Source: a virus. Taken from it: a stretch of DNA of 43,771 nucleotides. The notes beneath the pieces were generated by a model. That model did not search any database and was not told the origin of the DNA. It saw nothing but the letters and a program-made list of their open reading frames with translations. A program made the translations under genes and the position numbers. The stretch spans positions 1 to 43,771 of the IMG/VR virus record IMGVR_UViG_3300025769_000234; one strand, given 5' to 3'. Of the stretch, positions 11,944 through 36,350 are shown piece after piece (within the stretch, counting starts at the first letter, position 1; every line of letters starts with the position of its first letter).

Positions 11944-12255
11944 TCAGTCCGCCTGGCCGTAGTTGCGCTTGGAGAGCATCCCGCCGGTCTTCTTGCGGGG
12001 CTTTGCCTTGAGCAGGTCGGTACTGCCCCGGGTGTATCTCTTGCTGCCCTGCGACTTGGCGGACGCCGGTTTTTCTTGGCTCAGGACCGAGCGCTTAGTG
12101 CGCACGGCGTTCATGCGCTTCGGCTCCTCTTTCGGCACCGGCTTAGAGGCGCGTTTTTGGCGGGCCACCCGCGCAGCGGCGCCGCCGTAAGAGCCAAGGC
12201 CGGGGATTAGGAAACCCCTGCCGCCAACAGTCCCGTCTTGCCTAGACTTCGGCAT
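11944..12255 (-). CDS. Basic unknown protein (103 aa)
   Basis: A Lys/Arg/Ser-rich 103-residue protein with a Gly-rich N-terminus (GGRGFLIPGLGSYGGAAARV) and a disordered-looking basic remainder. The family is not recognised. It overlaps the upstream gene by 14 nt and abuts the next start. With its neighbours it makes a cluster of very basic small proteins before the terminase. Confidence 0.65.
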   Translation of the reverse strand: MPKSRQDGTVGGRGFLIPGLGSYGGAAARVARQKRASKPVPKEEPKRMNAVRTKRSVLSQEKPASAKSQGSKRYTRGSTDLLKAKPRKKTGGMLSKRNYGQAD

Positions 12256-12490
12256 CTTCGTCTTCCATCAGCCGAGGCTCAGAGTCCAACTCGATGACCG
12301 GCACCTCAATGACTTGAGGCTCCGGCTCCGGCTCAGGTTCAGCCTCCGCCTGCTCAGCATATGCTGCGGCGATGTCAGCACCAGCAACTAGATCGTCAAT
12401 GATTTGGGCGATCTCCGCCGCGCGAGCCGCCTTCCAGGCGCGTCGATGGGTCCGGCGCCGAGGGCGCGGGCCGTTCGGGTCAATGTCCAT
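12242..12490 (-). CDS. First gene of late operon: bipolar Arg-rich/Glu-rich protein (82 aa)
   Basis: The N-terminal third is Arg-rich (RPRRRTHRRAWKAARAAE), the middle is a short helix, and the C-terminus is acidic with an EPEPEPEP run ending MEDEDAEV. Such a charge-split protein may bind both DNA and a basic partner, of which several follow it. The family is not recognised. It is the first gene after the divergent control region, so it marks the start of the long late unit. Confidence 0.65.
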   Translation of the reverse strand: MDIDPNGPRPRRRTHRRAWKAARAAEIAQIIDDLVAGADIAAAYAEQAEAEPEPEPEPQVIEVPVIELDSEPRLMEDEDAEV

Positions 12491-12570: not shown

Positions 12571-12873
12571 ATGAGTAGTTACCAGAAGGAGCAACGGACA
12601 GCTTCTCTGATGCGCAGGCTTTACGGTCTGTGGGTCGGGCGCAGCCTAGATGACTCGCGCCACTACCAAGCCGGTAGCCTCTACTCGCCGCACATCCTGA
12701 CCTCTGAGGGCGAAGACCTCCCCAGGCAGTCCCTACGGGGCCTGGTAGACCGTGGATGGGTCCAGATGGTCAAGGAGCCGCACGGACCCGGAAAGCCGCC
12801 ACACGGCCTCCTGAGCCTGACTGACGAAGGCCGAGAAGTCGTCCTCGCTCTGCGCGCAGCAGAGAGTGACTGA
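12571..12873 (+). CDS. Winged-helix-like small regulator
   Basis: A 100-residue protein starting MSSYQKEQRTASLMRRLYGL. The second half reads as a winged helix: LPRQSLRGLVDRGWVQMV (recognition-helix-like), then a turn with HGPGKPPHG and GLLSLTDEGREVV (wing and helix), the pattern of MarR/PadR-type proteins. It would bind DNA, perhaps at the divergent region just upstream. The ATG at 12571 is chosen over an earlier start because the earlier residues are low-complexity and lie in the control region. No clear Shine-Dalgarno is seen. Confidence 0.65.
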   Translation: MSSYQKEQRTASLMRRLYGLWVGRSLDDSRHYQAGSLYSPHILTSEGEDLPRQSLRGLVDRGWVQMVKEPHGPGKPPHGLLSLTDEGREVVLALRAAESD

Positions 12874-13294
12874 GACGCACCGGACCAGGGGTTAGGCCCG
12901 TGTTGGTGTAAGAGGGGCAAGCTGTAATAGCAGCTTGTGAGCTCTCTTGCTCTTCGTGCGCCCCAGCCGTGCTGAGCATAAGCATAGCGTGGGGAAAGTA
13001 ATGTAAGCGGCTTGTATGGGAACCCGTGACTCGGGGCGACGCATGGGGGGGAGTGTATGGGTACCCACGCGCGCCAAATTCGGGATGGTGGGTGGGGGGG
13101 TACACCTGGTCAGCACCTGCATTGGGTCGCGCGTGCGAGCATACAAAGGCCAGAAAACATCGCGGGCGCCTGTGTGCGCGTGCGCCTGCCCAGCCCTGTG
13201 CGACAGGCCTGCGGCCCGGAGGGCCAGCCTAGGGTGGAGGCCCGGCACTCTGCTGAGGCCCCGCTTGAAAACCCCGTGCCCCCGGAGGCGCACC
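12874..13294. other. 421-bp non-coding control region with repeats
   Basis: No convincing gene lies here on either strand. It holds a 7-bp inverted repeat CAAGCTG-taatag-CAGCTTG (about 12919-12938), a 13-bp direct repeat TGTATGGG-N-ACCC at 13013-13025 and 13054-13066 (41-bp spacing, one difference) whose second copy includes the palindrome TGGGTACCCA, and a G-run tract at 13082-13100 that fits the G-quadruplex rule. It lies upstream of the gene at 13295 and could be its promoter/leader, an origin, or both. Confidence 0.55.
13284..13288 (+). promoter_or_regulatory. Shine-Dalgarno of the orphan Ala-rich gene
   Basis: GGAGG lies 6 nt before the ATG at 13295. It decides this start against longer upstream open frames. 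Confidence 0.8.
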
Positions 13295-13834
13295 ATGACG
13301 AACGACACCATCACCCTCACGCAAGAGCAACTCCAGTCCATCATCGCGCAGGGGATCGCGCAGGCCCTCGCGAAGGCCGCCGTGCCCGCGCCCGCGCCGG
13401 AGGCCGTTGCTGCGGCGCCTATCATCGCGCAGGAGGCTGGGCCCGATGCTGCGGCATTGCTTCGCGATATCGTGAAGGCCACGGCGGGCTTCGAGGATAT
13501 CGCGGGTCGCACGCTCGCGAACCCTGACAAGACTTGGGCGCGACGCCTCACCGGGCGCGTGTCCAAGGCGGGCAAGCCCTACGGCGGCTTCCTGCCCTTG
13601 CTCGATCGGGCGAGCGCGTTGCTGCACCACAAAACGGCGGGCTCGCTTGTTGCGAAGGCCAAGGCTGCGGGCGATGCGCGCGATGCGAGCGCGTTGGCGG
13701 CCGTCGGCATTGCGGTGGGCAAGGCCATCCTGACGCGTTCCGATGATGCGAACGCGCTTGCGGCCGCCGCGCAAGCTCGCTGCACCTCGTGGACCGATGC
13801 GCACTCCAAGGCGCTCGCCACGATGATCGGTTGA
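13295..13834 (+). CDS. Orphan Ala-rich helical protein (179 aa) with its own terminator
   Basis: The protein starts MTNDTITLTQEQLQSIIAQG. An N-terminal helix rich in Gln/Ala is followed by an Ala/Pro linker (AAVPAPAPEAV, about residues 28-40) and a long Ala-rich helical domain with KTWARRLTGRVSKAGKPYGG near its centre. It has no membrane segment and the family is not recognised. It stands alone between a long control region and a strong terminator 40 nt after its stop, with the best Shine-Dalgarno of the plus block, so it is probably transcribed separately and well expressed. The short N-terminal helix could serve oligomerisation. Confidence 0.75.
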   Translation: MTNDTITLTQEQLQSIIAQGIAQALAKAAVPAPAPEAVAAAPIIAQEAGPDAAALLRDIVKATAGFEDIAGRTLANPDKTWARRLTGRVSKAGKPYGGFLPLLDRASALLHHKTAGSLVAKAKAAGDARDASALAAVGIAVGKAILTRSDDANALAAAAQARCTSWTDAHSKALATMIG

Positions 13835-13873
13835 CGGCATCGCGGGTCAACCCGCTACAACACGACGCGCGAA

Positions 13874-13911
13874 GGGCGCCCTGGGCTTCGGCCCGGGGCG
13901 CCCTTTTTTTT
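13874..13911 (+). terminator. Strong intrinsic terminator
   Basis: A 13-bp stem (GGGCGCCCTGGGC / GCCCGGGGCGCCC, one G-T pair) with a TTCG loop is followed at once by eight T. It is the clearest terminator in the window and ends the transcript of the gene at 13295. Confidence 0.95.
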
Positions 13912-13925
13912 GTGTCCCGTGAGGC

Positions 13926-14432
13926 TTGCCTATCAACATCCTCACCCTCACCACCACCGTCGAACGCTCGTTCGACCCAACCATCCTCAACATCACCATG
14001 CTGAACTACCCCACCTACGAAAGGTCCATTTCCCCGTTCTTCCTGGTCGGGCTCGATGCCCAGAACCCCGACGGCAACTCCCGCGGCTTGCGCGTTGGCA
14101 TCAGCGCCATCTCCCGCCCGGGCTCGTCTTGGGTGGAGGTTGCCATCGTGATCGGTGGCATCGAGAACCCCGATACGGGCAAGCTCTACGCCAGGCTCAT
14201 CGACCCCTACGACTACGGGTACCGCCGCGACGCCGAACGCGATATGTGGGGCGGCGACAATGTGATGCGCATGTCGTGGAAAGCCTACGGCAATGCGATG
14301 CAGTACCTGACCGAGCATCAGCACGACAGTTGGAGCGGGTCGGCCCGCTACGGCCACAGCGCAATCTCCTGGGTCGCTCGCGTTCTCAGCGAGTGCGCCT
14401 ACACCGAAACCGAGCGCGAAGTGCGCTCCTGA
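13926..14432 (+). CDS. Unknown 168-residue protein (start uncertain)
   Basis: The family is not recognised. A TTG at 13926 gives 168 residues; the first ATG at 13998 gives 144 and starts MLNYPTYERSISPFFLVGLD. Neither has a good Shine-Dalgarno; I list the longer one. The protein looks like a compact alpha/beta domain (SSWVEVAIVIGGIENPDTGK) with many aromatic residues. It is the first gene after the strong terminator and no clear promoter is visible between them, so transcription must come from read-through or an unrecognised promoter. It begins the cassette that ends with the AAA+/VWA pair. Confidence 0.65.
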   Translation: MPINILTLTTTVERSFDPTILNITMLNYPTYERSISPFFLVGLDAQNPDGNSRGLRVGISAISRPGSSWVEVAIVIGGIENPDTGKLYARLIDPYDYGYRRDAERDMWGGDNVMRMSWKAYGNAMQYLTEHQHDSWSGSARYGHSAISWVARVLSECAYTETEREVRS

Positions 14433-14441
14433 CCTCAACAC

Positions 14442-14825
14442 ATGCTCAACATGACTTCAACACAACACGGACACATGCAAGACAACGGCAACGACTACGC
14501 ACTCTGGTACCGCCAGTTCTCGTACGAGGACTACGCGGACGCCCTCGACAACGGTGCATTGCGCAGCGCGGAGTGGAAGCTCATGGGCTGCGGCACCCTC
14601 ACCGAACTCAACCTGCTCCTGATGGGATATGGGTTTGAGATGCACACCGCTGAGGCCGAGGACGCCTCAGCCATGCCGCGCCGCATCGCCTACATCTGGG
14701 GCGACGACGAGTCGCCCCAGGTCGGGTGGTTGACGCAGCTCTGGTTGCAGCCTCACGGCCTCGACAAGCTGCCCCCTACGCGCTGCTCGTTTCCCGACGA
14801 CCACCCCGCATGGAGCGAGCAATGA
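14442..14825 (+). CDS. Unknown acidic 127-residue protein
   Basis: The family is not recognised. ATG codons at 14442, 14451 and 14475 are all possible; none has a clear Shine-Dalgarno. The protein is acidic and rich in Trp and Tyr (NDYALWYRQFSYEDYADAL; IAYIWGDDESPQVGWLTQLW). The stop overlaps the next start as ATGA at 14822. It is part of the cassette of unknown genes ahead of the AAA+ ATPase. Confidence 0.65.
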   Translation: MLNMTSTQHGHMQDNGNDYALWYRQFSYEDYADALDNGALRSAEWKLMGCGTLTELNLLLMGYGFEMHTAEAEDASAMPRRIAYIWGDDESPQVGWLTQLWLQPHGLDKLPPTRCSFPDDHPAWSEQ

Positions 14826-15055
14826 GCTACCGCAGCAATCGCTACCCCGAGTACATGCGAGCGGGCCTCAGCGCGAAAGCCGTTGAGGCCCGCTCTGCAT
14901 TGCAGGCCAACCCGGCCATCCCCCTCGCCAAGGTCCACGACTTGCTCGATGGCCTTAGCGACATGGAGTTGCGCGCTCTTGCCGTGCAACTCAACGGGAC
15001 GGCACGCATTCGCGTGCAAGCCCACCTTCGTTACCGCAACTACCTTCACGGGTGA
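14822..15055 (+). CDS. Unknown helical 77-residue protein
   Basis: A small helical basic protein (MSYRSNRYPEYMRAGLSAKA at the start, then HDLLDGLSDMELRALAVQL). The family is not recognised. The start forms ATGA with the previous stop, so translation is probably coupled. No motif suggests a function. Confidence 0.65.
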   Translation: MSYRSNRYPEYMRAGLSAKAVEARSALQANPAIPLAKVHDLLDGLSDMELRALAVQLNGTARIRVQAHLRYRNYLHG

Positions 15056-15060
15056 ACAAC

Positions 15061-15720
15061 ATGAGCAACAGCAACAACAACCTTCGTCCTACCCCCCTCA
15101 ACCCCATCGACAGCGACAACGCCATGCCTGAACACGACTTCAACAACCCGCCCAAGGTCCACAAGATCGACCAACCCGATGACTTCACGCTGTTTGCGGG
15201 CTGCGTGATGTCGCAGTTCCTCACCGCCGACAGCGTGGTGCGTTACACCAACAGCCGCGCTGGCGCAGCCTACATGCAGACCATCAACGCGGTGTTCCGC
15301 ATGGTGGACCTGCGCGGCCCGTTCGACGACATCGACAAGCTCATGGGCTTCATGATGCAGAGCCACCTCTTCCATTGCAGCCTGGCTACCTACGAGCGGT
15401 TGCATGAGGTTGCCCGTGCCAACCCTGACGCCAAGGCGTTCGCAAGCCTGCTCAAGCATGTGCCCAAGCCTGGCCCCGAAACCATGACCTACTGGGAAGA
15501 CCTCAGCGATGACCTGTCCGTGTTCTTTGGCACCGAGTGGGTCAATGCGTACGAGCGCAAGCTGTACTTCCTGTGGCGTGACATGGACAGCATCCGCGTC
15601 GTGCTTGACCGCTTCCTGCGGGACAAGCACCAATGCGACCACCTCGACTTCCACCTGACCCGCAGGTATCCCCGCCCCACGGGCAACAACAACGACAACA
15701 CCAGCAACGGGAGCAACTGA
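15061..15720 (+). CDS. Unknown 219-residue helical protein with Asn-rich ends
   Basis: The protein begins MSNSNNNLRPTPLN and ends in an Asn/Ser-rich tail (NNNDNTSNGSN). The body is helical and rich in aromatic and acidic residues (FDDIDKLMGFMMQSHLFHCS; LSVFFGTEWVNAYERKLYFL). A GTG at 15052 overlapping the previous stop would add three residues. The family is not recognised. The gene lies within the tightly spaced cassette, one base before the next ATG. Confidence 0.7.
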   Translation: MSNSNNNLRPTPLNPIDSDNAMPEHDFNNPPKVHKIDQPDDFTLFAGCVMSQFLTADSVVRYTNSRAGAAYMQTINAVFRMVDLRGPFDDIDKLMGFMMQSHLFHCSLATYERLHEVARANPDAKAFASLLKHVPKPGPETMTYWEDLSDDLSVFFGTEWVNAYERKLYFLWRDMDSIRVVLDRFLRDKHQCDHLDFHLTRRYPRPTGNNNDNTSNGSN

Positions 15721-15721
15721 C

Positions 15722-16120
15722 ATGGATTCCCCCACACTTACCAGCAGCCTCGAACACTGCCACTCGTACGCCGAATGGGTCATTTCCCAGTCGAGCGCAG
15801 ACTTTCACGACATCCAGCGTGTCAACCCTGGCGAGTACGCCGAAGCCGTTAGCGCCCGACTGATGGAGCGCATCACGGATCACATCGGCCACCCGTCTCA
15901 CGCATCGGCGGTCATCTGCACCGCAACCATTGAGGAGTACGCAATCGCTTGCTCCATGTGCTTCGGCATCAAGTTTGACGATTCAATCGACGCGTCGGCA
16001 TTGTCTGCGCTCATTGAGAAGCACAAGAACCTCAGCATGGGCATGTACCTCATGATCCTTGCTGCATCCATCATCATCCAACGACTCGACGCTAACCACA
16101 AGGAGAACTCCAATGGCTGA
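15722..16120 (+). CDS. Unknown 132-residue protein with hydrophobic C-terminal helix
   Basis: A mostly helical protein ending in a hydrophobic stretch (GMYLMILAASIIIQRL, about residues 107-122) that may be a membrane segment or a buried helix. It contains several Cys/His (ICTATIEEYAIACSMCFGIK). The family is not recognised. It overlaps the AAA+ gene by 8 nt, so the two are probably made together. Confidence 0.7.
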   Translation: MDSPTLTSSLEHCHSYAEWVISQSSADFHDIQRVNPGEYAEAVSARLMERITDHIGHPSHASAVICTATIEEYAIACSMCFGIKFDDSIDASALSALIEKHKNLSMGMYLMILAASIIIQRLDANHKENSNG

Positions 16121-17720
16121 CTACTACACCTGCGAACACAACTACGAGCTGTACACGGGCAGCGCCCTCAACTACACCAACTACTGCGGCATAGCGCACA
16201 GCACCATCGAGGCTGCTGAGGCGTGTTGCCACGACCACAACAGCTTATGCAAGCGTGATGGGGTCAACGCGCTCCGTCGTGTGAGGTGCAAGCCGCGAGC
16301 AAGTATGCACGACTCCGACCTCCATGTGGTGGGCGGCTTGCTCCGCGATATCGTGCCGCCTTCCACCAAGCAGGTGCCGCCGGTTACTTGGGATGACTAC
16401 ATCAACCAACGGCGCGCTACCGAGGGCGGCTCACCCCGCTCCTTTGAGGGCTTCCTTGAAGTGCTGCGCGCGACCTACATCGAGATTGGCGACCGTGGGA
16501 CATACACCCTGGCCCGTTGGGCAGAGAGGCTGTCTACCCAACCAGTACCACGCCTAAGGGCGGCCTTGATGGACGACATCGAGGACGCAAGGGGCAAGGC
16601 CGACAAAGCCCGCCCCGGTGGCAAGGCGTTCTGGAGGAACCATTCGCGGTTCATCTGCTTGGACTTCCTGAGGAGGTACCACGACGAAGCCTGCGTACTG
16701 CTCACCGCCCACCCCAAGCTGGACCACCTCGAACCCATCGTTGACCCCCAACCCCAACCCCAACTCGACCCCATGATCGACAACAACAAGACCGCCAACG
16801 AGATCGCCGCTGCCATCGCAGGTATCCTCACGCAAGGCCAGGGCCAGCAACAGGATGTGCAGGCACTCGCCAAGCAGGCTGCGCGTGACGCCATTGCGGA
16901 GGCAACCCGTGACGGCACCCTCACGATGTCCGTCGAGATCATCCGTCCCGACAAGGTGGTGATGCAGCTCCCCAAGGGTGAGGCCTTGCACGCTGCATTC
17001 ACCCCCACCATGCAAGCCATCGCCGCTGGCGAGTCACCTCTCCTCAAGGGCCCTGCGGGTACTGGCAAGTCCATGCTCGCCAGGCAAATCGCAACGGCGC
17101 TCGACCTGCCGTTCATGCACATGTCGTTGTCCGGCGGTACTGGCGAGCATCACTTCGTCGGCACGCGCTTGCCCAACAAGCGTGGTGAGTTCGAGCATGT
17201 CGGCACCCCGTTCCTCGATGCGTTCGAGAACGGTGGCGTGATGCTGCTCGACGAGATGGATGCCTGCGACGAGAATGTGTTGCTCTGCATCAACAACGGC
17301 CTCGCTAACGGCGAGCTGCCCGTGCCCGGTCGTGACGCCAAGCCGTACGCCACCAAGCACAAGGACTTCCGCCTCATTGCGGCGGCAAACACCTGGGGCT
17401 CTGGCCCCAACGCCATGTATGCAGGGCGCAACCAGCTTGACGCTGCAACGCTCGACCGCTTCATGTTGACCGAGGTGGATTACGACCGCGCCCTTGAGCG
17501 GTCACTTGTTCCGGACTTCCCGCTGCTTGTGAGTGCGTGGCACACGCTGCGTGACCAGGCCAGCCGAGCACAGCTGCGCCGCGTCGTGTCAATGCGTGGC
17601 CTCATTCGCTACGCCAAGATGATGCGCACCCACAACTGGGATGTCGAGAAGTGCCTCAAGCACGCAACGCAGTCGTGGTCTTCCGACGAGCGCAACGCCT
17701 GCAAGGTTCTGGAGGGTTGA
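16113..17720 (+). CDS. MoxR/CbbQ-type AAA+ ATPase with Cys/His-rich N-terminus
   Basis: A 535-residue protein. The C-terminal AAA+ domain has Walker A GPAGTGKS (about residues 313-320), Walker B VMLLDEMDA (about 376-384), sensor-1-like AAANT (about 423) and an arginine-finger-like ATLDRF (about 445), followed by a helical lid. The arrangement fits the MoxR/CbbQ/NorQ (dynein-related AAA_5) group, ring ATPases that remodel other proteins together with VWA-domain partners. The N-terminal 210 residues are unusual: a Cys/His-rich start (YTCEH...YCG.AH...CCHDH..LC) that may bind zinc, then a helical segment and a Pro/Gln linker (QPQPQLDP). A good Shine-Dalgarno (AAGGAG, 16100-16105) supports the ATG at 16113. 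The probable VWA-like partner follows 1 nt after the stop. Confidence 0.85.
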   Translation: MADYYTCEHNYELYTGSALNYTNYCGIAHSTIEAAEACCHDHNSLCKRDGVNALRRVRCKPRASMHDSDLHVVGGLLRDIVPPSTKQVPPVTWDDYINQRRATEGGSPRSFEGFLEVLRATYIEIGDRGTYTLARWAERLSTQPVPRLRAALMDDIEDARGKADKARPGGKAFWRNHSRFICLDFLRRYHDEACVLLTAHPKLDHLEPIVDPQPQPQLDPMIDNNKTANEIAAAIAGILTQGQGQQQDVQALAKQAARDAIAEATRDGTLTMSVEIIRPDKVVMQLPKGEALHAAFTPTMQAIAAGESPLLKGPAGTGKSMLARQIATALDLPFMHMSLSGGTGEHHFVGTRLPNKRGEFEHVGTPFLDAFENGGVMLLDEMDACDENVLLCINNGLANGELPVPGRDAKPYATKHKDFRLIAAANTWGSGPNAMYAGRNQLDAATLDRFMLTEVDYDRALERSLVPDFPLLVSAWHTLRDQASRAQLRRVVSMRGLIRYAKMMRTHNWDVEKCLKHATQSWSSDERNACKVLEG

Positions 17721-17721
17721 C

Positions 17722-18726
17722 ATGCCGAAGATGCTGCAACAGTTTCGCAATGACTCAACCCAATGGTTCACCCGCACGGTGTACGGGTACAACAAGAAGG
17801 ATGCGCGAGATGACTACGAGCGAGGCAAGGACGACAGCAAGCGTCAAGTTTACTGCGTCTACAACTACCGTACGGCGTCGGACTACATGGACATGTGGCA
17901 CCTCCCTGAGGACCATTCCGTGTGGCGCTGCGAGAAGTTCGGCGAGTTCGGCCGCGAGTATGTGCGCAAACACAAGAGCAAGGATCCGTTCTACCTGGGC
18001 AGGCAAACCCTTGAGAGCGTCGAGCAAGACTGGCTACGGGGCTGCAAGCAAGAGGAGATCAGGTCGATGTCCTCGAAGCTGCGGTCGAAGGCCGAGGGCA
18101 TGATCGTTAGCCGCAAGCGCAAGCGTCGCTACAACGGCGTCGTCGGCGAGGTTGACGCTGACCGTTGGGCTAACAGGCGATACGATCAGGCATTCGTTGA
18201 CCGCCCCCGCACGGGCAACAAGGGTGTCCCCATCGTCACGGTGCTGGCCCAGTTCGGCGGCAACGCCGGCAAAAGCCATGAGGAATTGCAATGGAACGGC
18301 GTCGCGGCCGTTGCCCTTTGCGACGCACTCACTAGCGCCGGGTGGTCTGTCGGGTTGCACATGTTTGCCGCCCACCAGAGCAACCACGACCGCAAGGTCA
18401 TGACGCTGCATTGTATGCCGATGAAGCGACCGGAGGACATGTTGAACCTGGGCATGGTTGGCGCAATGGCGTGCCACCCGTCAACCTACCGGGCTCACAT
18501 GTTTCGCCAGTACCAGGGCCTCGACTGGGTGAAGCCCGGCCCCGCCCATGGCACCCCCTTCACCATGGAGCGGTTTCGTGAAGAGCATTCCACCATGTTC
18601 GACCGACTGCGCGACACCATGCCGGGCAACACCATCGTGCTTGAGTCCAGCTACTCGGAGCGTGCCGCAGAGCAGCATGTGACCGATGCGCTCGACATCA
18701 TCAAGAATCCCATGATTCTGGGTTGA
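17722..18726 (+). CDS. Probable VWA-like partner of the AAA+ ATPase
   Basis: A 334-residue protein with a GGAGGG ribosome site inside the end of the AAA+ gene. The N-terminal half is charged and helical. The C-terminal half reads as a Rossmann/VWA-like fold: a strand VPIVTVLAQFGGNAGKS (about residue 169), a helix ending ALCDALTSAGWSV, a second strand VGLHMFAAHQS, later HCMPMKRPEDMLNLGMVGAM. MoxR/CbbQ ATPases are usually followed by VWA proteins, and the strand-helix-strand pattern agrees. The metal-site motif DxSxS of true VWA domains is not present at the first strand (LAQFGGNAGKS), so this would be a degenerate form. The partner role is inferred from context and fold pattern. Confidence 0.6.
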   Translation: MPKMLQQFRNDSTQWFTRTVYGYNKKDARDDYERGKDDSKRQVYCVYNYRTASDYMDMWHLPEDHSVWRCEKFGEFGREYVRKHKSKDPFYLGRQTLESVEQDWLRGCKQEEIRSMSSKLRSKAEGMIVSRKRKRRYNGVVGEVDADRWANRRYDQAFVDRPRTGNKGVPIVTVLAQFGGNAGKSHEELQWNGVAAVALCDALTSAGWSVGLHMFAAHQSNHDRKVMTLHCMPMKRPEDMLNLGMVGAMACHPSTYRAHMFRQYQGLDWVKPGPAHGTPFTMERFREEHSTMFDRLRDTMPGNTIVLESSYSERAAEQHVTDALDIIKNPMILG

Positions 18727-18734
18727 CGGGTAGG

Positions 18735-18767
18735 TGTAGCCATGCGTACAACCTGCGCATGGCTACA
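18735..18767 (+). promoter_or_regulatory. 12-bp inverted repeat spanning the start codon of the ribbon-helix-helix-like gene
   Basis: TGTAGCCATGCG (18735-18746) is perfectly repeated in inverse as CGCATGGCTACA (18756-18767) across a 9-nt loop. An outer pair GGGTAG (18728-18733) / CTACCC (18775-18780) adds to it. The right arm contains the ATG at 18759. In DNA it is a palindromic operator candidate; in RNA a hairpin that hides the start codon. Confidence 0.75.
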
Positions 18768-18998
18768 TCAAAATCTACCCGCCGTACTGCATCGCAGGGC
18801 CATGGCGGCTGGCGCCCCGGCGCTGGCCGCCCCAAGCTCTCACCCGAAAAGAAAGCAAGCGTCACCATCAGCATTCAGGTGTCGCCTGCGGAAGCCGACG
18901 CAATCCAGCGTGGGCAGGAATACTACGGGTACAGGGTTCGCTCCCCGTACCTGCGGCACATCATCATCAAGCACCTTGAGGAGGAGGGGCTGCGGTAG
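18759..18998 (+). CDS. Ribbon-helix-helix-like small DNA-binding protein
   Basis: A 79-residue protein. The basic N-terminal tail contains GGWRPGAGRPKL, a motif seen at the start of many small phage and plasmid DNA-binding proteins. The rest fits a ribbon-helix-helix: strand KASVTISIQV, helix A PAEADAIQRGQEYYG, helix B RSPYLRHIIIKHLEEEG. Such proteins repress transcription as dimers on short palindromes, and a 12-bp perfect palindrome lies on this gene's own start. A TTG at 18723 would add 12 residues inside the hairpin and is less likely. The 3' end overlaps the convergent nuclease gene by 32 bp. Confidence 0.7.
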   Translation: MATSKSTRRTASQGHGGWRPGAGRPKLSPEKKASVTISIQVSPAEADAIQRGQEYYGYRVRSPYLRHIIIKHLEEEGLR

Positions 18999-19275
18999 CG
19001 CACACTAAGCGCAACGCATCGTCCACCGACTCAACAACGGAGGCCTGGCCCGCCCATGCGGCGTGCCAGGCCTTTTCTTTTTCCGTCAACGCTCGCGCGC
19101 TTTTCGCCTTGCTGCCGTCCTTGATCTCGAACAGCAGGTTGACGCCCCGATAACCAACAACGACATCGGGGCACCCATTGCCAACGGTTGCGAGGCTAGT
19201 AACCGTTGCCCCGATCGCTCGCAATGCGCGGACGATCTCCGCCTGGTTCGCGTCCACCTTCGCTGCCCGCCGCAT
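18967..19275 (-). CDS. VRR-NUC-like PD-(D/E)xK nuclease
   Basis: A 102-residue protein (MRRAAKVDANQAEIVRALRA at the start). The core GCPDVVVGYRGVNLLFEIKDG holds the PD...(E)xK pattern of VRR-NUC and related phage nucleases: a D after GCP, then E and K in FEIKDG. Such small enzymes usually act as structure-specific or Holliday-junction-type nucleases in phage replication and recombination. The ATG at 19275 is preferred to an upstream ATG at 19416 because earlier residues do not fit the family. It overlaps the helicase-loader gene by 80 nt in another frame, an unusually long overlap, and its 3' end overlaps the convergent gene ending at 18998. Confidence 0.8.
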   Translation of the reverse strand: MRRAAKVDANQAEIVRALRAIGATVTSLATVGNGCPDVVVGYRGVNLLFEIKDGSKAKSARALTEKEKAWHAAWAGQASVVESVDDALRLVCATAAPPPQGA

Positions 19276-19786
19276 CGTCGATACGGTACTGGGCTGCAAT
19301 GGGCGCCGCAATGTGCAGCAAGTCTTGCGCTTGCCCGATTGCAACGACGGCATCGTCACGCTCGCCAATGTTGCGATACGCCTCCAGGAACCTCGCGCGT
19401 AGGCTGACAACCTCACCCGCTAGTAGGTTGCGGCACATCGCCTCCCAAGGCCCGCCAACCGCCTCGATCGCGCGGCGGGCAAGCGTTGATAGGTTTGGCT
19501 CGCCCGTGTACCCGACGCGCCCGATCTCCTTGCGCACGCTACCCCACGCTTCCTCAGCCGTCTCGCCTTGCGTTTTGCAAGTTTCTAGAAGCTGACCCGG
19601 GGTTGGCGGGAAAGGCTTGTTCGCACGCGACCACGCAATGGCCGCCGCAAGGATCATCTTGCCATCCGCATCGGACAGCAAAGCGTGCCACGCGCTAACG
19701 GTCGCGGCTGCATCGCCAGACCCAATGCGCTTGGGGTAGACCTCCGTGAGGATTGCCAGGACAGCTGCGGTTTCATCGCGGCTCAT
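19196..19786 (-). CDS. Replicative helicase loader (G39P-like)
   Basis: A 196-residue protein whose N-terminal domain follows the pattern of the loader of phage SPP1 helicase (G39P family): MSRDETAAVLAILTEVYPKR, then AATVSAWHALLSD, and a helix ending AIAWSRANKPFPPTPGQLLE. It would bring the host DnaB-type helicase to the initiator at the origin. The C-terminal region is longer than in short family members and ends in a Gly/Arg-rich tail. The start lies in an ATGA overlap with the DUF1376 gene, fitting joint synthesis of initiator and loader. No phage helicase gene is present, so the host helicase is probably recruited. Confidence 0.75.
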   Translation of the reverse strand: MSRDETAAVLAILTEVYPKRIGSGDAAATVSAWHALLSDADGKMILAAAIAWSRANKPFPPTPGQLLETCKTQGETAEEAWGSVRKEIGRVGYTGEPNLSTLARRAIEAVGGPWEAMCRNLLAGEVVSLRARFLEAYRNIGERDDAVVAIGQAQDLLHIAAPIAAQYRIDDAAGSEGGREPGGDRPRIASDRGNGY

Positions 19787-20514
19787 TGTGCGCCTCCGTT
19801 GAGCATGTTCTTGAAAGGGTTGGTCCCGTTAGTTCGGGGGGGTAGCGGTGTAGGTGTTGCGGATCGTTTGGGATGCACGGACTTCCATCCGCAACGCGAT
19901 GCGAGGTTGTACGCCTCGACCCATTGCGTTGCGGTCCAGTCCGCCGTGAGGTTCTTGAGCCACATCTCGCGGGTCCACATCGGCATGTTGCCGTCACGGC
20001 GGGTCGCGAGGTAGCCGTGCAAGGCTTGGTGCAGGTCATCCGGCATCGCGCCGTTGAGCCGCTCCCAATCCGTGATGGCCTTGGCAAGCTCGTCCTCGGC
20101 GTTACGCCGCCTCCTAGGCTTTGCCTCTGCCTTTGCTTCTGCCTTTGCATATGGCACCACACGCCCAGCATGTGCTGCGCTCTTCTTAGCGCGTGCTAAG
20201 CCAGCTTGGCGTCGCTTCTCGATAAGCTCCATCGCGTCGAGGCGCTCGTTGTGCAGCCTCGGGTTGTAGAGGTCGCCGTCCATGTCGGCCTCGAAGCACT
20301 CGCCAACGGGCCCCTCCAGCAGGGCGTCAACCTCAGCCTCGGTCATCTGGAGTAGCCCGCGCAGGTGTCGCCTGGGCACGGTGCCGTTCTCCCACTGCAA
20401 GGCGAGGATGCGGATGTACGCGCCCTGCTCGGCCAGCGTCATAAGCATGACCGAGGGCGATGCGAGCCAGTCGCGCGGGAAGAACTTGAAGTAGGGTAGG
20501 TAGTCATTCGCCAC
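19783..20514 (-). CDS. DUF1376 replication-initiator-like protein
   Basis: A 243-residue protein. The N-terminal domain YFKFFPRDWLASPSVMLMTL followed by EQGAYIRILALQWENGTVP is a clear DUF1376 (YdaU-type) sequence, found in phage replication proteins that play the role of lambda O. A basic linker with KAEAKAEAKPRRRR (about residues 122-135) and a second helical domain (GWKSVHPKRS near its end) follow. It probably binds the phage origin and, with the adjacent loader, recruits host helicase. It overlaps the Cro-like gene by 11 nt and the loader by 4 nt. Confidence 0.8.
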   Translation of the reverse strand: MANDYLPYFKFFPRDWLASPSVMLMTLAEQGAYIRILALQWENGTVPRRHLRGLLQMTEAEVDALLEGPVGECFEADMDGDLYNPRLHNERLDAMELIEKRRQAGLARAKKSAAHAGRVVPYAKAEAKAEAKPRRRRNAEDELAKAITDWERLNGAMPDDLHQALHGYLATRRDGNMPMWTREMWLKNLTADWTATQWVEAYNLASRCGWKSVHPKRSATPTPLPPRTNGTNPFKNMLNGGAQ

Positions 20515-23062: not shown

Positions 23063-23643
23063 GCCTCCGGCGCTTCCGGCGTTTCCGGCTGGTCTTGAGT
23101 GTGCTTTGCGCCTGCGGCTTTGAGCAGATCCTTGGCGGTCTGGCCGAGGTTGCCCACAAGCGTGTGGCGCGCAGCGTTCTTGGTGTGCATCCGCCCACGC
23201 TTGCTGAACAGCATAACAAGTAGCGTGCTGGCAAACGGCATTAGCGGTTGCAGCGGCACCGGGATGAGCGGGTCGAGCAGGGCAAGGATCCCGTGGACGC
23301 CACCGCTAAGGTGCTTCTCAATGATCCCCCGCTCTTGTTGAGCGATGCGCGTGTATTGCTCGGTCAGGAGTTTGTGTTGCTCCTGTCGCTGGTCCAGCTT
23401 GGCGAGAGTGATCTGCGCCCCCATCCAATCGGCAGCCTCGGCTTGCTCGCGCGCTTCTTCGGCAAGCGCTTTGATGTCTAGCTCGGCTTTGTCGATGGCC
23501 TGATCCCAGTCCGCAAGCGACTCTTCGTATGCCTGTAGAGTTGCTTGCGCCTCGGGGGAGAGCGACCGGTTGAGTAGTGAGTCCATGGCCTCGCAACCGG
23601 TCAGGGTTACGAGCATGGCTGCGATGCAGAGGGTTCGTTTCAT
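23059..23643 (-). CDS. Phage lipoprotein with coiled coil and internal hydrophobic segment
   Basis: A 194-residue protein beginning with a lipoprotein signal (MKRTLCIAAMLVTLTGC; lipobox LTGC, Cys17). A long charged coiled coil follows (residues 30-110), then a hydrophobic stretch (PLQPLMPFASTLLVMLFS, about 132-149) and a Gln/Glu/Pro-rich tail. Lipid attachment places it at the outer leaflet of the inner membrane or in the outer membrane, so the host is Gram-negative if this is a spanin-like part. It lies next to the XhlA-like gene, suggesting a lysis module. It could also be a superinfection-exclusion lipoprotein. The start overlaps the upstream stop as TAATG. Confidence 0.75.
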   Translation of the reverse strand: MKRTLCIAAMLVTLTGCEAMDSLLNRSLSPEAQATLQAYEESLADWDQAIDKAELDIKALAEEAREQAEAADWMGAQITLAKLDQRQEQHKLLTEQYTRIAQQERGIIEKHLSGGVHGILALLDPLIPVPLQPLMPFASTLLVMLFSKRGRMHTKNAARHTLVGNLGQTAKDLLKAAGAKHTQDQPETPEAPEA

Positions 23644-26600
23644 TAGTCAAAGTCCAGGAAGTAGGCCTTGTCGCGCTCCACGAAGTCCCGTTCAGGGTAG
23701 GTGCGCGTCATGTGCAATCCAAAGGTGTCGCCTATAAAGTCGAAGACGCTGTCTTCTCCGGCAAGCATATGGAGGAAAGACTGGCTCGCAATCGGCATGG
23801 TGCCTATAGCCATGTCCGCAGCGAGTGCAGGGAGTTTCCTAGGGTCAAGCGAGCCTCCAGGGTTGAACTCCCACTTCTTGAGCCCCGTGAACTGATACCC
23901 GCCATCGAGGTCGGGGATCATGATGGCGTCTTTGTTGAAGTAGTTGTCGGACACCAGGGTTTGCTTGTACGACTGCCCCTTCCAGTCCGTGCCGGACAGA
24001 AAGCCCAAACCCAACCGCGGGACAAAGCCCGCCTTGGCTTTTAGCGGACCGAACAGGTCAGAGCGCTCGATCGGATTCAGGATGGATGCGAACATGTCCG
24101 TGAGCCACTTACCGCCATCAAGGAAGTGGCCCAGTACGGAGAAGTAGACTCGGCTGTCCGGGTGGTGGGGCTTCTCCTTGCCGAACAGATCGTGCAGGTA
24201 GTCGTCCATCGCATTCGCGAGGAGCGTCACATCCGGGTTCAGCACATTGAGCCGGGCCTTGCCTCTCAGCTTGAGCGTGTCGATGTAGTGGTCGGCAATC
24301 GTCTTCTCGTCGTCAAGCCCAGCCATCAGCGCGTTCCACATCACCGTGATGATCTGGCTGCGCACCATCGCGTTCAGCATTAGGCTCCGGTACATGCTCG
24401 CCCTGACATTGCGAATGGCCTCCTCTTTGGTTTTGCCTAGGTAGCTGTAGTCCTTGCCGAGCTTTCGTTGCAGAAACTTGCTCTGGTTGATGAGCGTCGT
24501 GAAGTTCGATTCCGTCCAGTCGGTCGCAAGGAACAATATCCTGTTGTTCTTCTCGCTTGCGGCGCTGCGGGGTTTGCCGCCAAGGATCTGGCCGCCACGG
24601 TGCAAGTTGCGGCCACCGAAGTCGGCGTTGATCTTGCCAGCGACCTCAAACGCAATGTCGTCCGTCGTCAGTAGGCCGTCAGAAATCTTCTGCGCGTTCT
24701 TCTCCAGTTCGTGGCGGTAGTTCAGCAGGGCGGCGCGGACCTTGAGGGACGAGCCGAGCTTGGTGAACAGCAGGTGGTTGGCCCGGTTGCGGTAGTCCGC
24801 CATTGAGTTCGCTACCGCCAGCCCGACATCGGCTGCGCCGGGCACGCCCGCTTTGCCGAACATCTTTCCGAGGCCGACGGCCATGTCCTCGATGAAGGTG
24901 AACTTCCAAAGCTCCTCCCCGGCCATAGCCTGCTCGTATTGCAGGCCCATGCTTACGGTCAGTCCGTTAGCTTTGAGCTTTGCGAAGTCCGGGTGGTTCA
25001 TCGCAATATGCTCGGCGCCCGCCCGAACGCTGGGCGACTCCATCATGATGCGCTCGCCCCATTTCTTGGCGCCCTCGCCAACAAACGGCAGGGCGGCCAT
25101 GCCCGCGCCAAACATGACGCGCGGCGCCTCGAAGGTTAGCCCGGTAACGCCTTTGAATAGGCCGGGGATGCTAAAGAAGTAAGAGCGGTTGAAGGCGCCG
25201 TGGTGGAACAGCGAAGTGAAAAGCATCGAGGCCTTCGTCTTCGAGTTCAGGAAGTAGAGCCCCTTTTGAAACTGCGACCACCCCGTACCCGACCAGTCAA
25301 GACGGTTGGTGCGGTTGAACACCTCGGTCTTGAACTGCTCAAGAATGTAGATGTCGCGAAGCGCAGGCGCGTTGCTCCCCAGCGGCACATAGCCGTCCGG
25401 CACATCCTTGTGACCCTCATGCGCAATGCCCGTACGCAGCAGCACATTGCGGAAGAATGTGTTGCTCGTCATCTCTAGGGCGTCCGCGTGGACCCGCTTA
25501 CTGATCGCGGCGAAGTTGCTGTTGATGAGCTGCTGCCCCCTGGCCCAGCCAACAAGGGCGCTTTCATACTGCCTGGCTTTGGCGCGGCCACCCAGGCCAG
25601 TCTTGAAGCGCCCGCCAGCCCGTGTCGGGTCAGACTCAGCCCCGGACAGCGAGATGACGTTTTGCGCTTGCAGGGTTACTTTGTCCCTGGTCCAGATGCG
25701 AGGCGCATAGAACGCCCGCGGGTTCTGAATCAGGTTGCGTGCCTTGAGGTCGCGGCCAAGAAGCTCGTTGCGGTATGCACCCTCGCGCATGAGCTTCTCG
25801 ACCCCGGGAGGCAGATCGAGCGCTGTAGCAATGACGCGCTCCTGCTGCGCATTCCAGGGGTTGCCGTTCTTCTTGGCCTTGGCGCGGTACTCGTCAACAT
25901 GGGCCTCCATCGACACTCCAGTCTCGATCTGCATGTTCTCCAGATCGACGCGGTGGTAGATGGCGGCCATGGTTTCGCGGACCCATACGCCGGGCTTGAT
26001 GTTCTTGGGGCGAAGCTCTAGCAGGCGCTCCTCAAAGCGCGACCAGTAGTAGTCGTTGTCGGCTTTGTTGCTCTCGAACCGCGACTGGAAGTGGTCGTAG
26101 GCAGCCTCGTAGACCATTCGGGCCTCGTTGACTTCGCTGTCCGCCCCCACATGGGGAAACAGGCCAAACGCAAAGCGGTCATCGTTGTCCTCCCAGAGGC
26201 GGTACCCGGTTATGTGTTCATCGACCTCGCGCACAGCCTTGGCTGCACCGATGGCGTAGCGGTTGCCAAGACTACGGATCTTGGCGGGGAACACCGCTAC
26301 GGCTTGGCGGCCATCGCCAATGTCCTCGAAGTCGGACCCAAGCTGCTGCGCCAACTCCTCTGCCATGGCAATGTCGTCAACAACAATGTCGGCGACGCCC
26401 TCCATGGCGGCGTGGTGAATGACCTGCTTGGCGACGGCGGGAATGTCCGCCTCATCAAACTCGGGCATCTCGGGGAAGTATGCGAACGCGCCACCAGGCG
26501 TCGTGCGCATGGCGCCCCCAAGGACCATTGCGCGGTCACCGATCTCGAACATGCCTCGCACATGCACTTCGCCGCGAGGCCCATTGACGCGCTGCCGGAA

Positions 26601-29600
26601 CCCGTATCCGACGCCATCAACTCCGCTGTCGAACGACTGCGCAAGGTTGTACATGAACCGGGCGTTGGTGCCGTCGGTGTCCTGGCCGTGGAACACGGGG
26701 ACAAGCTGATCGGCGCTAAAGACCGCTACGCTTTGGGCGTACGCATCGCCGTCCTGGGAGCTTAGCCTTTCGGATACCGCAAAGGCGTCAAAGCCCGCAG
26801 CGCGAATAGCCTTCTGCACCGGAGGAAGTTCAACCCCAGTCCAGTTGTTGGGCGCGTTCAGGACCATGCCAGCGCGATCGACTTCATCGGCAATGCCGGT
26901 GGGTCGATCAAACTTGTGGTTGCCCGTCATGTGGTTTTCCACCTGGCCGGACATCCACCCAATCGCGCGGTTGCGAAGTTCTTCCGGCATGGTCGCCAGG
27001 CTGTCGCCAGGCTGCATGTACGGGTTCTCAATGACGAGGGTTGTGTATTGCAACTCTTCGTCAAGCCGCTCCATAACCCTGGGGTCGAGGGGGTCAGTCA
27101 CGCGCTCGCCGTTGATAGTTAGCGCGCCCTTGGTTTGCATGTACGCAAACCGGTTCTCCACCTCCGGCATTCCTTGGTCGAGGCCGCGAGAGGCCTCCAC
27201 CGCCGCGCCCACCAGAACGATTTGGTCAGCAAGGTTGCCAGTCTTGCTGGGCAGGTGGTCAATCAGTTCGGATGCGTCGCGCGCCCCGTCGAACATTTTG
27301 TCGTAAAGCACATAGTTCCAATACGTCTCGAGCATCGGCGAGCCGCGCTCGAGCATTTTGGACTCAAACCACGGGCGCAAGCGCTCTTGGAGCAGCCCGT
27401 CGGGGCTGACCATGATGTACGGATCTTGCTGCTTGAGGTCATATTCCCAGAATGCCGACGCGCTGGTGTGCATCGTCATGATGGGAGTGCCGCCGGGGTC
27501 GCTCAGGACATTGCGCCCGTCTTGAACCTGAGCGAGGTAAGCCTCGTTGCCCAGCTCCGCAATAGGCTTGCCGTTGAGCAGGTGGGGCATCAGGTTCGCG
27601 ACCGCGATTTTGCCGTGCGAAGCGGTGCTGAGGTCAATGATGGTGCGCAGGCTGTCCAGGTTCTGCTTGGACATGTACCCGGGGGTCAGGGCCGCGACCG
27701 CATTGACGGCAGTTGCGGCCATGATGCGCCGTTCGGCCTGCACATGGAACTCAATGAATGCCTTGTTGACCGTGCGGGCGACGGTGTTGATGTCGCGCTG
27801 CGTCAGCTCTGAGCGCGCTTTGGCGTAGTCGCGCCAAGCGTTGATTGCTACGGCGCCCAAGAGCCCAAGGTCGCGATCCACAGCTTCCTTGATGGTGCGC
27901 CCCTGGTCGGCTATGGCGTCGTTGGTGTCGAGGTTCGCAATGCTTCGGCCCCCCGCCGGGCGCGGCATCCTTTCTCGCATTTGCTCAAACGATGCGATGT
28001 TGTTCAGCATCGGCTCAAGACCGCGCAAGTACCCCTGCACTCCGAACTGGTACTCAGCGAGGAAGTCCCGAAGCACGTCGTGGGCCTCAGGGCGGATTGC
28101 GCCGTTGCGGTTTAGCGCCAGGGGCACGGTGTGCAGCAGCGCTTGAAGCTCAGCGTCTAGCTCAGCGGCGACGACATCAGCTTCCACCCCAATGCTGGAC
28201 CCGGTGCCCGGATCGAGCGTCAAGTTGAAGGCAAACCCCTGCTTCTTTTTCTCGGACAGTTCGGGGTCGTGAAGCTCTTGCCAGATCTCGTCAAGCGGGC
28301 GCAGCCAAGTGTCTAGCTCGGCGGTCGTCAGCCTGCTTTCGGTGACTGAGGTGGCGACTACGGCGGTCCAGCCCGAAGCGATCTTGTTCTGCTCCTCGAC
28401 AGTCAGGTCTTTCCAGAGCATGTCGGCGAAGGTGGCGACCGGAGCCGGTTTTCCCGTAGTCACCTTGCGCTTCTTGGACTTCATGAGCGGGTGGCTCAGC
28501 ATGTCGCCGAGATATCCACGAAGCGACTCCGGCGCGTTGCTCCACCATTCAAACGACAGCGGTTGAGTGGCAGGCACTCTGCTGTTGGCCTCACCGGCCT
28601 TTCGAGCCTGCCGACGCTCGGCGCGCGTCGGCTCCGCGGCAATTTCCTTGGCCCACGGGCGCGGCTCTTGCGGGAACTCTTCGCGCAAGATGTCAAAGAG
28701 CCCTTGGGCGTCAGTGTAGAGCGGCGTCCGCCCGCTTTCCTTTCGCTTTTTGTTCTCTAGGTATAGTTCGCGCTTTCGCGCGTCCCTGGCAAGGCGGCGT
28801 TGTTTCTCGCGCGCCCACCATTCCTGGTGCATCTTGCGCGCCGCCTCGCGCTGCGGCTTGCTGTCAAGTCGCTCCAGAGCCACTTCCAAGTAGGACGGTG
28901 CGTCGCGAATCACATCCGCCAGAAGGTTTGTCCGGGTCGGGTAGAAGCGGGGGATCCTGTTGCCCTTCTTGCCCTTGAGCCCGTAGATGTCGTACGGGAT
29001 AGACTGCGCATCCATCTCCGCGTCAAGCTCTGCGTACGCCATGGAGCGCAAGGCGGCTGTGGCGAATGCCACCCTGATTGGCGTCGCTGCCTCCCCGACA
29101 GGGAAGAGCATCTCCATGATCGCCTTGTCGAACTCGCTTTGCTCTTTGTACGGAATGCGCTCGCGCAGGATCTGCTTGGCTCGATCCAGCGCGTCTTGCA
29201 TTTCTACTTCTTCAACGCGGATGCCCATTCTTTCCGCAAGTACACGGGCAGCCTCCTTTTGGGCCTTAGCCAGCGCCTTGTTGGCGTCTTCGCCGACGAG
29301 CTGCTTGACCTGCTTGCGTCGCTGTGCGCGAGTTTTCGCCTTTGTGGGCTGGGCTTCCGTTTCGGCTGCCGGTGCCGCTTCGGCGGCAGGCTCAGCCACG
29401 GGCTCGGGCTCCGGCGCAACAGCCTCCTCTACGGCTTCGACAACCTGGGCCTCAACAAGCTCGTCAACAATGCGCTGCTGGTCAACCGTGAGTCCGGGCG
29501 CAGTCTCGACCTTGGGCCTTGCGTCTTCGGGCTTCTTTGCTTTGGGCTCGGCCTTGCGCGGCTCAACCTTGGGCACATTCTCCGGGGGGATGCCGCGCTC

Positions 29601-35785: not shown

Positions 35786-35786
35786 A

Positions 35787-36350
35787 TCAGAAGGGCATGT
35801 ATTGGCCGTAGTTAGTGCTTGCGGCTTGAGCGGGCAGGTTCCTAGCCATTGAGCCCGCAATGGTGCCCGCTAGGCCAGACGAACCAGCGCCCGACATTGC
35901 GTTTGCCATGTACGCTCCAGAGACAGCGCTAGCAAAATCGCCAGCCATCCCTTGCGGAGCTTCCTGCATGACCATGGGGAACTCGGCTCCAGAGCGAACG
36001 GCGGCAAGGGCTTGCCCGTACTTGTACTCCAGTTCCTGCGCCGCGTCGGCTGCGTCGCGATATGCAGCGCGTTCCACGCCAAGGCCAACGCTTCCGGTCG
36101 GATCCATTCCGCGATCAGCCATGCGAGCTTTTGCGTCGCCAGCCATCTTGGTGGCTAGGCGCGTGCCAACCCTAACGGCGTCCAGCTTGGAACCTTTGAG
36201 GTAGCCCTCCGAGATGCCGAAGTTTTTCTCCTGAAAGGCCAGGGCCTGGGCCTGCTGACCCAGGTTGCCTTTCATGGCCTCTTTTGCGGCCTGGTTTTGC
36301 ATGATGCCGCCAACAACGGCGGCGCCTAGCGTTGCGGAAACGACGCCCAT
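35787..36350 (-). CDS. Internal virion (ejection) protein, gp14-like, 187 aa
   Basis: The start MGVVSATLGAAVVGGIMQNQ is a Gly/Ala hydrophobic helix as in T7 gp14-type proteins, followed by helical Ala/Gly-rich sequence (LGVERAAYRDAADAAQELEY) and a Gly/Ala-rich hydrophobic C-terminal third. Such proteins leave the capsid first and enter the outer membrane. Its place before the gp15-like and giant genes supports this. The start overlaps the preceding stop (TGATG). Confidence 0.72.
   Translation of the reverse strand: MGVVSATLGAAVVGGIMQNQAAKEAMKGNLGQQAQALAFQEKNFGISEGYLKGSKLDAVRVGTRLATKMAGDAKARMADRGMDPTGSVGLGVERAAYRDAADAAQELEYKYGQALAAVRSGAEFPMVMQEAPQGMAGDFASAVSGAYMANAMSGAGSSGLAGTIAGSMARNLPAQAASTNYGQYMPF

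What the first reader, a model, noticed from the sequence alone, without database searches (positions are those of the whole stretch)
13926..18998. Uncharacterised cassette: five unknown genes, a MoxR-type AAA+ ATPase, a VWA-like protein and an RHH-like regulator
AAA+ (MoxR/CbbQ) and VWA pairs act in cells as remodelling machines, and related pairs occur in defence or stress systems. Here the pair is in a phage early/middle block with five tightly linked unknown genes and its own possible repressor. The ATPase has an added Cys/His-rich N-terminus and the partner seems to have lost the usual metal site. This is the best candidate in the window for an undescribed system, perhaps host takeover, counter-defence or remodelling of a replication complex.
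Basis: inference. Interest (0 to 1): 0.75.

Follow-up and report, generated by a model that had tools for sequence, protein, structure and literature searches.

The report
Widespread phage AAA+/metal-less VWA pair
The two large genes encode a widespread but uncharacterised phage protein machine, an ATP-driven ring plus a stripped-down partner that has lost its metal site, while the five small genes around it appear to be fast-changing local passengers rather than parts of a new system.

Summary
At 13926-18998 (+) lie five tightly packed ORFans, an AAA+ ATPase (16113-17720), its partner (17722-18726) and a short RHH-like gene.

The ATPase/partner pair (PHROG 249 + Pfam DUF7192) is not private to this phage. 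It recurs in hundreds of phages, including Kayvirus, Listeria A511 and Acinetobacter Herod. Of 166 AAA+ loci examined, 160 carry the partner; five of the six exceptions end at or near a contig edge. In reverse, 39 of 39 partner loci carry the AAA+.

The partner is a degenerate VWA domain homologous to phage CobT, without CobT's metallopeptidase domain and, family-wide, without the MIDAS metal motif. Independent fold searches put the ATPase nearest CbbQ/NorQ and the partner nearest NorD, two halves of one solved machine. Best reading: a NorQD/CbbQO-type remodeller without a metal site.

Only 4 of 50 genomes holding the pair have CobN, so a cobalamin role is unlikely in general. The five small genes are not conserved with the pair, and the RHH gene persists in a sister phage lacking it, so it is backbone. 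The pair is an accessory module in a variable early-region island.

Verdict: new variant of a known kind; client unknown.

The parts
12571..12873 (+). gm1, small gene on the + strand (100 aa); backbone gene at the left edge of the variable island
   Evidence: Homologues in L224 99%, L232/L233 58%, L226/L237 27% at the same place
13295..13834 (+). g0, 179 aa, unknown, separate transcription unit upstream of the cassette
   Evidence: Coding by codon usage; no convincing family; in-order counterpart in L232
13871..13906 (+). Strong intrinsic-terminator hairpin (16 pairs, then a T run) between g0 and g1
   Evidence: z -6.0
13926..14432 (+). g1, unknown gene (168 aa from TTG; 144 aa from ATG at 13998)
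   Evidence: no homologue
14442..14825 (+). g2, unknown gene, 127 aa
   Evidence: no homologue
14822..15055 (+). g3, unknown gene, 77 aa, overlaps g2 by ATGA
   Evidence: no homologue
15061..15720 (+). g4, unknown gene, 219 aa
   Evidence: no hit in phages or viral contigs
15722..16120 (+). g5, unknown gene, 132 aa, overlaps the start of the AAA+ gene
   Evidence: Distant homologue directly before the AAA+ gene in sister phage L232 (27%, E 4e-7)
16113..17720 (+). AAA+ ATPase, 535 aa: Cys/His N-terminal motif (residues about 6-39), mostly helical low-confidence middle, CbbQ/NorQ/CobS-like AAA+ core (about 290-535)
   Evidence: AAA_5 1.5e-17; phrog_249 2.5e-51; Foldseek top CbbQ2/NorQ, E about 1e-13; active-site residues invariant
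17722..18726 (+). DUF7192 partner, 334 aa: degenerate VWA domain without MIDAS (QFGGN in place of DxSxS at residues 177-181)
   Evidence: DUF7192 7.1e-19; AF2 pLDDT 76; Foldseek top NorD VWA; hhalign to phage CobT VWA, prob 93.5
18759..18998 (+). RHH-like small gene (79 aa; HGGWRPGAGRP motif, then a strand-helix-helix pattern); backbone gene at the right edge of the island
   Evidence: Homologues in L232 (40%) and in L226, which lacks the pair (35%)
19042..19082 (+). Terminator-like hairpin and T-rich tail after the RHH-like gene, inside the opposing nuclease ORF
   Evidence: z -4.3

Best explanation
The pair is a phage-encoded remodelling machine of the NorQD/CbbQO/CobST kind. By inference the AAA+ forms a hexameric ring and the DUF7192 protein docks on it as a VWA adaptor, so that ATP hydrolysis moves the adaptor and remodels a client protein complex. 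The adaptor descends from, or shares an ancestor with, phage CobT. It lacks the metallopeptidase domain and the metal-binding MIDAS motif, so it must hold its client without the usual metal bridge. The gene context (replication and DNA-modification genes) suggests that the client acts in the early or replication phase. Shown here by computation: near-obligate pairing, homology to CobT, VWA-like fold, absence of MIDAS, conserved ATPase residues, accessory status. Inferred: hexamer, docking, client and timing. g1-g5 sit in the same block but are not part of the conserved machine.
For: Co-occurrence: 84 of 86 AAA+ loci (window, phage records and 80 viral contigs) carry DUF7192, nearly always as the next gene, and the other two stop at or near a contig edge. 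In bacterial genome contigs the count is 76 of 80. In the reverse search it is 39 of 39. Fold: the AAA+ model's best PDB matches are CbbQ2 and NorQ (E about 1e-13, TM to target 0.78). The partner model's four best are all the G chains of NorQ-NorD VWA complexes, taken to be NorD (best E 2.6e-3, prob 0.99). In the viral library, DUF7192 proteins are followed by viral CobT and VWFA proteins (E about 1e-4). Homology: DUF7192 versus phage CobT VWA by hhalign gives prob 93.5, E 2.2e-7, including the G-x-LD-x2-R motif before the domain; 30 column-shuffled controls reach at most prob 0.57 and E 0.1. Loss: CobT has HExxH in 52/52 and DxSxS in 49/52; DUF7192 has HExxH in 0/84 and DxSxS in 0/59. AAA+ proteins split by partner type on one branch, SH-aLRT 99. 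Active site conserved. Helicase-loader, primosomal and exonuclease genes lie next door; named neighbours elsewhere are mostly replication, methyltransferase and terminase families. In NorQD, MIDAS mutants still bind the ATPase but lose client function (PMC9976466), so a MIDAS-less adaptor could still dock.
Against: No experiment and no complex model. The partner's PDB match is weak (E 2.6e-3, TM to query below 0.3) and its N-terminal third is low confidence. With only two CobT sequences the profile comparison was poor (prob 5.6). The two AAA+ groups in the tree were collected with different queries, which could exaggerate the split. Co-occurrence was measured on the 80 closest relatives per collection, not on all. 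One genome locus (L144) has a truncated AAA+ ORF and no partner within 5 kb. Terminase neighbours leave a late role possible.
Confidence: 0.7

Rival explanations
1. Virion-assembly chaperone: the AAA+/VWA pair folds or assembles tail or head proteins, as proposed for the MoxR-vWA pair of jumbo phages and for the two-tailed archaeal virus ATV.
For: Published proposal for a related phage MoxR-vWA pair (PMC7824862). Some pair loci lie near terminase genes.
Against: In the window the pair is in an early-type island next to replication genes. It is absent from a sister phage with an 89% identical terminase and a shared structural region, so that virion type does not need it. The jumbo-phage pair's partner has a metallopeptidase domain; DUF7192 does not.
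Confidence: 0.17
2. Cobaltochelatase subunits that hijack host CobN to raise cobalamin production, as proposed for viral cobST clusters.
For: Proposal in PMC8651126. The partner is homologous to CobT, and the AAA+ family is annotated 'porphyrin biosynthesis'.
Against: CobN/ChlH family PF02514 is found in only 4 of 50 genomes that hold the pair. The AAA+ is far below the CobS cut-off (29 vs 558.55 bits). MIDAS and peptidase are absent. Kayviruses infect S. aureus, which makes no cobalamin (own knowledge, not tested).
Confidence: 0.04
3. Counter-defence or host-takeover effector: the machine dismantles a host defence or transcription complex.
For: It is an accessory module in a variable early island bounded by terminator hairpins, a typical place for such genes. 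PHROGs files the AAA+ family under 'moron, auxiliary metabolic gene and host takeover'.
Against: No defence-family match beyond generic AAA+ similarity to IetA. Conservation across many unrelated phages and hosts suggests a general client rather than one specific defence.
Confidence: 0.2
4. The eight genes form one dedicated system with its own repressor.
For: Operon-like packing between two terminator hairpins. g5 has a distant homologue at the same place in L232.
Against: g1-g4 have no homologue in any of 85 other pair loci or in sister phages. The RHH-like gene is kept where the pair is absent.
Confidence: 0.06

Closest known systems
NorQ/NorD (nitric-oxide reductase maturation; MoxR-class AAA+ with VWA partner)
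   Same: Both halves are top fold matches; AAA+ gene next to a VWA-partner gene
   Different: DUF7192 lacks MIDAS and the NorD N-terminal domain; no NOR client known in phages; the AAA+ carries a Cys/His motif and a long extension
CobS/CobT, including phage cobST clusters (PMC8651126)
   Same: Adjacent AAA+/VWA genes in tailed phages; partner VWA homologous, including the G-x-LD-x2-R motif
   Different: Partner half the size, no HExxH, no DxSxS; AAA+ on the other side of a supported branch; pair found where CobN is absent
MoxR-vWA pair of group 2.2 jumbo phages (PMC7824862)
   Same: Phage-encoded AAA+/VWA pair proposed to be a chaperone system
   Different: There the vWA is fused to a metallopeptidase; here it is not
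PHROG 249 + PHROG 1909/35469 (Pfam DUF7192), e.g. Kayvirus SaGU1, Listeria A511, Acinetobacter Herod
   Same: This is the family: same pair, same order (A511 by adjacency in its annotation)
   Different: The window's AAA+ has an extra Cys/His N-terminus; identities to these are about 40% or less

Membership tests
Pfam DUF7192 / phage AAA+-DUF7192 pair | Partner matches DUF7192 above the curated cut-off | tested here: met
   68.7 bits vs cut-off 27
Pfam DUF7192 / phage AAA+-DUF7192 pair | Adjacent AAA+ of the PHROG 249 family | tested here: met
   2.5e-51; partner present in 84/86 AAA+ loci
MoxR-class AAA+/VWA remodellers (NorQD, CbbQO) | AAA+ core with CbbQ/NorQ-like fold and intact Walker A/B, sensor 1 and Arg finger | tested here: met
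MoxR-class AAA+/VWA remodellers (NorQD, CbbQO) | Partner with a VWA fold | tested here: met
   NorD VWA top match but weak, E 2.6e-3; viral VWFA/CobT about 1e-4; hhalign to CobT, prob 93.5
MoxR-class AAA+/VWA remodellers (NorQD, CbbQO) | MIDAS (DxSxS) in the VWA | tested here: not met
   0 of 59 members; window has QFGGN
MoxR-class AAA+/VWA remodellers (NorQD, CbbQO) | AAA+ ring binds the VWA partner and ATP hydrolysis remodels a client | not testable with these tools
   No complex prediction offered; no experiment
Cobaltochelatase CobS/CobT | Score over the curated CobS (TIGR01650) cut-off | tested here: not met
   29 vs 558.55 bits
Cobaltochelatase CobS/CobT | CobT with metallopeptidase-like HExxH domain and MIDAS | tested here: not met
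   0/84 HExxH, 0/59 DxSxS
Cobaltochelatase CobS/CobT | CobN in the same cell | tested here: not met
   4 of 50 genomes holding the pair have it; the window's own host is unknown
RHH regulators | Ribbon-helix-helix fold binding operator DNA | tested here: inconclusive
   Sequence pattern and sister homologues only; no family match

The most novel reading that the evidence does not exclude
DUF7192/PHROG 249 is an undescribed, very widespread viral AAA+ machine. Its pseudo-VWA adaptor, related to CobT, works without metal and remodels a conserved host or phage complex early in infection. To my knowledge it would be a rare or first AAA+/VWA system shown to work without a MIDAS.
Probability: 0.45. 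Interest if true: 0.7.

Novelty: new variant of a known kind. Interest (0 to 1): 0.5.

Why it matters
The pair is carried by model phages (Kayvirus, Listeria A511, mycobacteriophage LeBron) and is labelled 'porphyrin biosynthesis' or 'hypothetical'. Reading DUF7192 as a metal-less CobT/NorD-type VWA corrects that label. It argues against a cobalamin role and gives a concrete, testable mechanism in tractable phages. It also offers a natural test of whether MIDAS metal is needed for AAA+/VWA machines.

Tried and rejected
Single-protein scans for close relatives of the partner, the AAA+ and g4 in viral contigs found none; alignments were needed. The full DUF7192 alignment was too diverse to scan with, so one subfamily was used. 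The DUF7192/CobT comparison with two CobT sequences was inconclusive and was repeated with 49. DNA similarity of 13000-20000 to named phages gave one 173-base hit, outside the cassette at the replication-gene end. Rejected: cobaltochelatase, known defence system, a unique eight-gene system, RHH as a dedicated repressor. Papers on DUF7192: none held. No structures were predicted for g1-g5: without homologues they would have been unreliable. A survey of only the immediate neighbours was prepared but not scanned, because the wider survey already answered the question as far as it could.
Full report
WHAT IS THERE. The window is a 43.8-kb IMG/VR virus record. On the + strand, 13926-18998 holds five small genes, an AAA+ ATPase, a partner and a small RHH-like gene. 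From g1 to the partner, neighbouring genes overlap by up to 8 nt or are separated by at most 9 nt. Codon usage supports all of them in their own frames. A strong terminator hairpin lies at 13871-13906, between g0 and g1, and a second hairpin with a T-rich tail at 19042-19082; the second overlaps the opposing nuclease ORF. The block is an island of + strand genes. On its right are minus-strand replication genes (helicase loader, primosomal protein) and then an exonuclease VIII gene on the + strand. On its left are minus-strand genes leading to terminase, portal and capsid.

THE PAIR IS WIDESPREAD. The ATPase matches AAA_5 and PHROG 249, and the partner matches DUF7192. Using the ATPase as bait, 345 phage records matched at E 1e-15, and at least 543 viral-contig stretches encode relatives. 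I took the 80 best and looked for DUF7192 in each. Counting the window and five phage records, 84 of 86 have it, and the other two end at or near a contig edge. In bacterial genome contigs the count is 76 of 80; three of the four exceptions end within about 0.8 kb of the ATPase or inside it, and one (L144) has a truncated ATPase ORF. Starting from DUF7192 instead, 39 of 39 loci have the ATPase; this set covers one subfamily and partly the same contigs. The partner is usually the next gene, but it lies upstream in L004, 0.8 kb away in L015 and 4 kb away in L009. That argues against an accident of shared neighbourhood.

WHAT THE PARTNER IS. An AlphaFold model built from 59 relatives (pLDDT 76) has a VWA-like strand/helix order. 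The four best PDB matches are all the G chains of NorQ-NorD VWA complexes, though at weak scores (best E 2.6e-3, prob 0.99). Viral CobT and VWFA proteins follow DUF7192 itself in the viral library. Independently, the DUF7192 profile aligns to the VWA region of 49 phage CobT proteins with hhalign prob 93.5 and E 2.2e-7; 30 column-shuffled controls reached at most prob 0.57 and E 0.1. Earlier, a PDB sequence search with the profile had CobT as its top, non-significant, hit, on the same region.

WHAT IT LACKS. Phage CobT proteins have a median of 602 aa, an HExxH motif in 52 of 52 and a DxSxS motif in 49 of 52. DUF7192 proteins have a median of 302 aa, HExxH in 0 of 84 and DxSxS at the aligned site in 0 of 59. 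The first Asp is still D in 23 of 59 and N in 25; in the window it is Q. The lack of MIDAS is therefore a family trait, not a peculiarity of this phage. That it is a loss rather than the ancestral state is inferred from the intact site in CobT and NorD.

WHAT THE ATPASE IS. Its catalytic residues are invariant in 42 relatives. The AAA+ core is modelled with high confidence; the N-terminal 225 residues are mostly not. Best PDB folds are CbbQ2 and NorQ. It scores far below the curated CobS cut-off. In a tree of 55 AAA+ cores, DUF7192-paired and CobT-paired proteins separate on one branch with SH-aLRT 99. The two groups were gathered with different queries, so this is supportive rather than final. 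The N-terminal Cys/His motif (YTC...CGxxHxTxExAExCC) recurs in sister phage L232, in L007/L008 and on a different AAA+ in L267, so it looks like a portable metal-binding tag; metal binding is inferred.

THE ISLAND IS VARIABLE. Terminase relatives led to sister contigs. L232 has the same order: gm1, other genes, a distant g5, AAA+ (46% in the core), partner (35%), RHH-like (40%), nuclease, helicase loader, primosomal gene. L226, with an 89% identical terminase, has gm1 and the RHH-like gene at the same places but neither AAA+ nor DUF7192 between them. So the pair is an accessory module, and the RHH-like gene is backbone rather than the pair's repressor. g1-g4 have no detectable relatives in L232 or in any pair locus.

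MECHANISM. The best-supported reading is a NorQD/CbbQO-type machine. In NorQD, a finger of the VWA sits in the ATPase pore and ATP-driven rotation strains the partner and its client (PMC13036017). MIDAS mutants of NorD still bind NorQ but lose client function (PMC9976466). A MIDAS-less adaptor should therefore still dock, but must hold its client some other way. That is inference. The client is unknown. Replication, methyltransferase and terminase families are the commonest named neighbours elsewhere, and the window's pair lies beside replication genes, so an early client is favoured.

ALTERNATIVES. The cobalamin proposal for viral cobST (PMC8651126) does not carry over in general: only 4 of 50 genomes that hold the pair encode a CobN-family protein. 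Many of these are draft or metagenome-assembled genomes, so single absences are soft, but 46 of 50 is not. The virion-assembly proposal for jumbo-phage MoxR-vWA (PMC7824862) remains open. Counter-defence is possible but has no direct support; no defence family matched beyond generic AAA+ similarity.

NOVELTY. A phage AAA+/VWA pair is a known kind of thing. What I did not find described is that DUF7192 is a CobT-like VWA without peptidase and metal site, in near-obligate pairing with PHROG 249. No paper in the held library names DUF7192; that library is incomplete.

Noticed in passing
window 23643-34079 (-): A single 3478-aa ORF, about a quarter of the window, without any Pfam match.
   Followed up: partly
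window 37493-40984 (-) and 34046-35860 (-): Two more large ORFs (1163 and 604 aa) without Pfam or PHROG match.
   Followed up: partly
window 1-2970 and 41919-43771: Stretches at both ends of the window hit the same places in sister contigs L226, L245 and L253 repeatedly, which suggests repeated domains, perhaps in a large structural gene.
   Followed up: no
L267:1-1251 (-): A different AAA+ protein in a sister phage carries the same N-terminal Cys/His motif, suggesting a small swappable metal-binding tag.
   Followed up: partly
L224 against window 10914 and 11944-12257: A near-identical sister (terminase 99%) has about 1.6 kb extra at window position 10914 and lacks the 103-aa ORF at 11944-12255.
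   Followed up: no
L226, between its gm1 and RHH-like genes: In place of the pair this sister phage carries other genes, among them a pentapeptide-repeat-like protein: the island swaps content.
   Followed up: partly
window 18967-19416 (-): Nuclease-like ORF (weak Hjc match, below cut-off) whose 3' end overlaps the RHH-like gene and which contains the downstream hairpin.
   Followed up: partly
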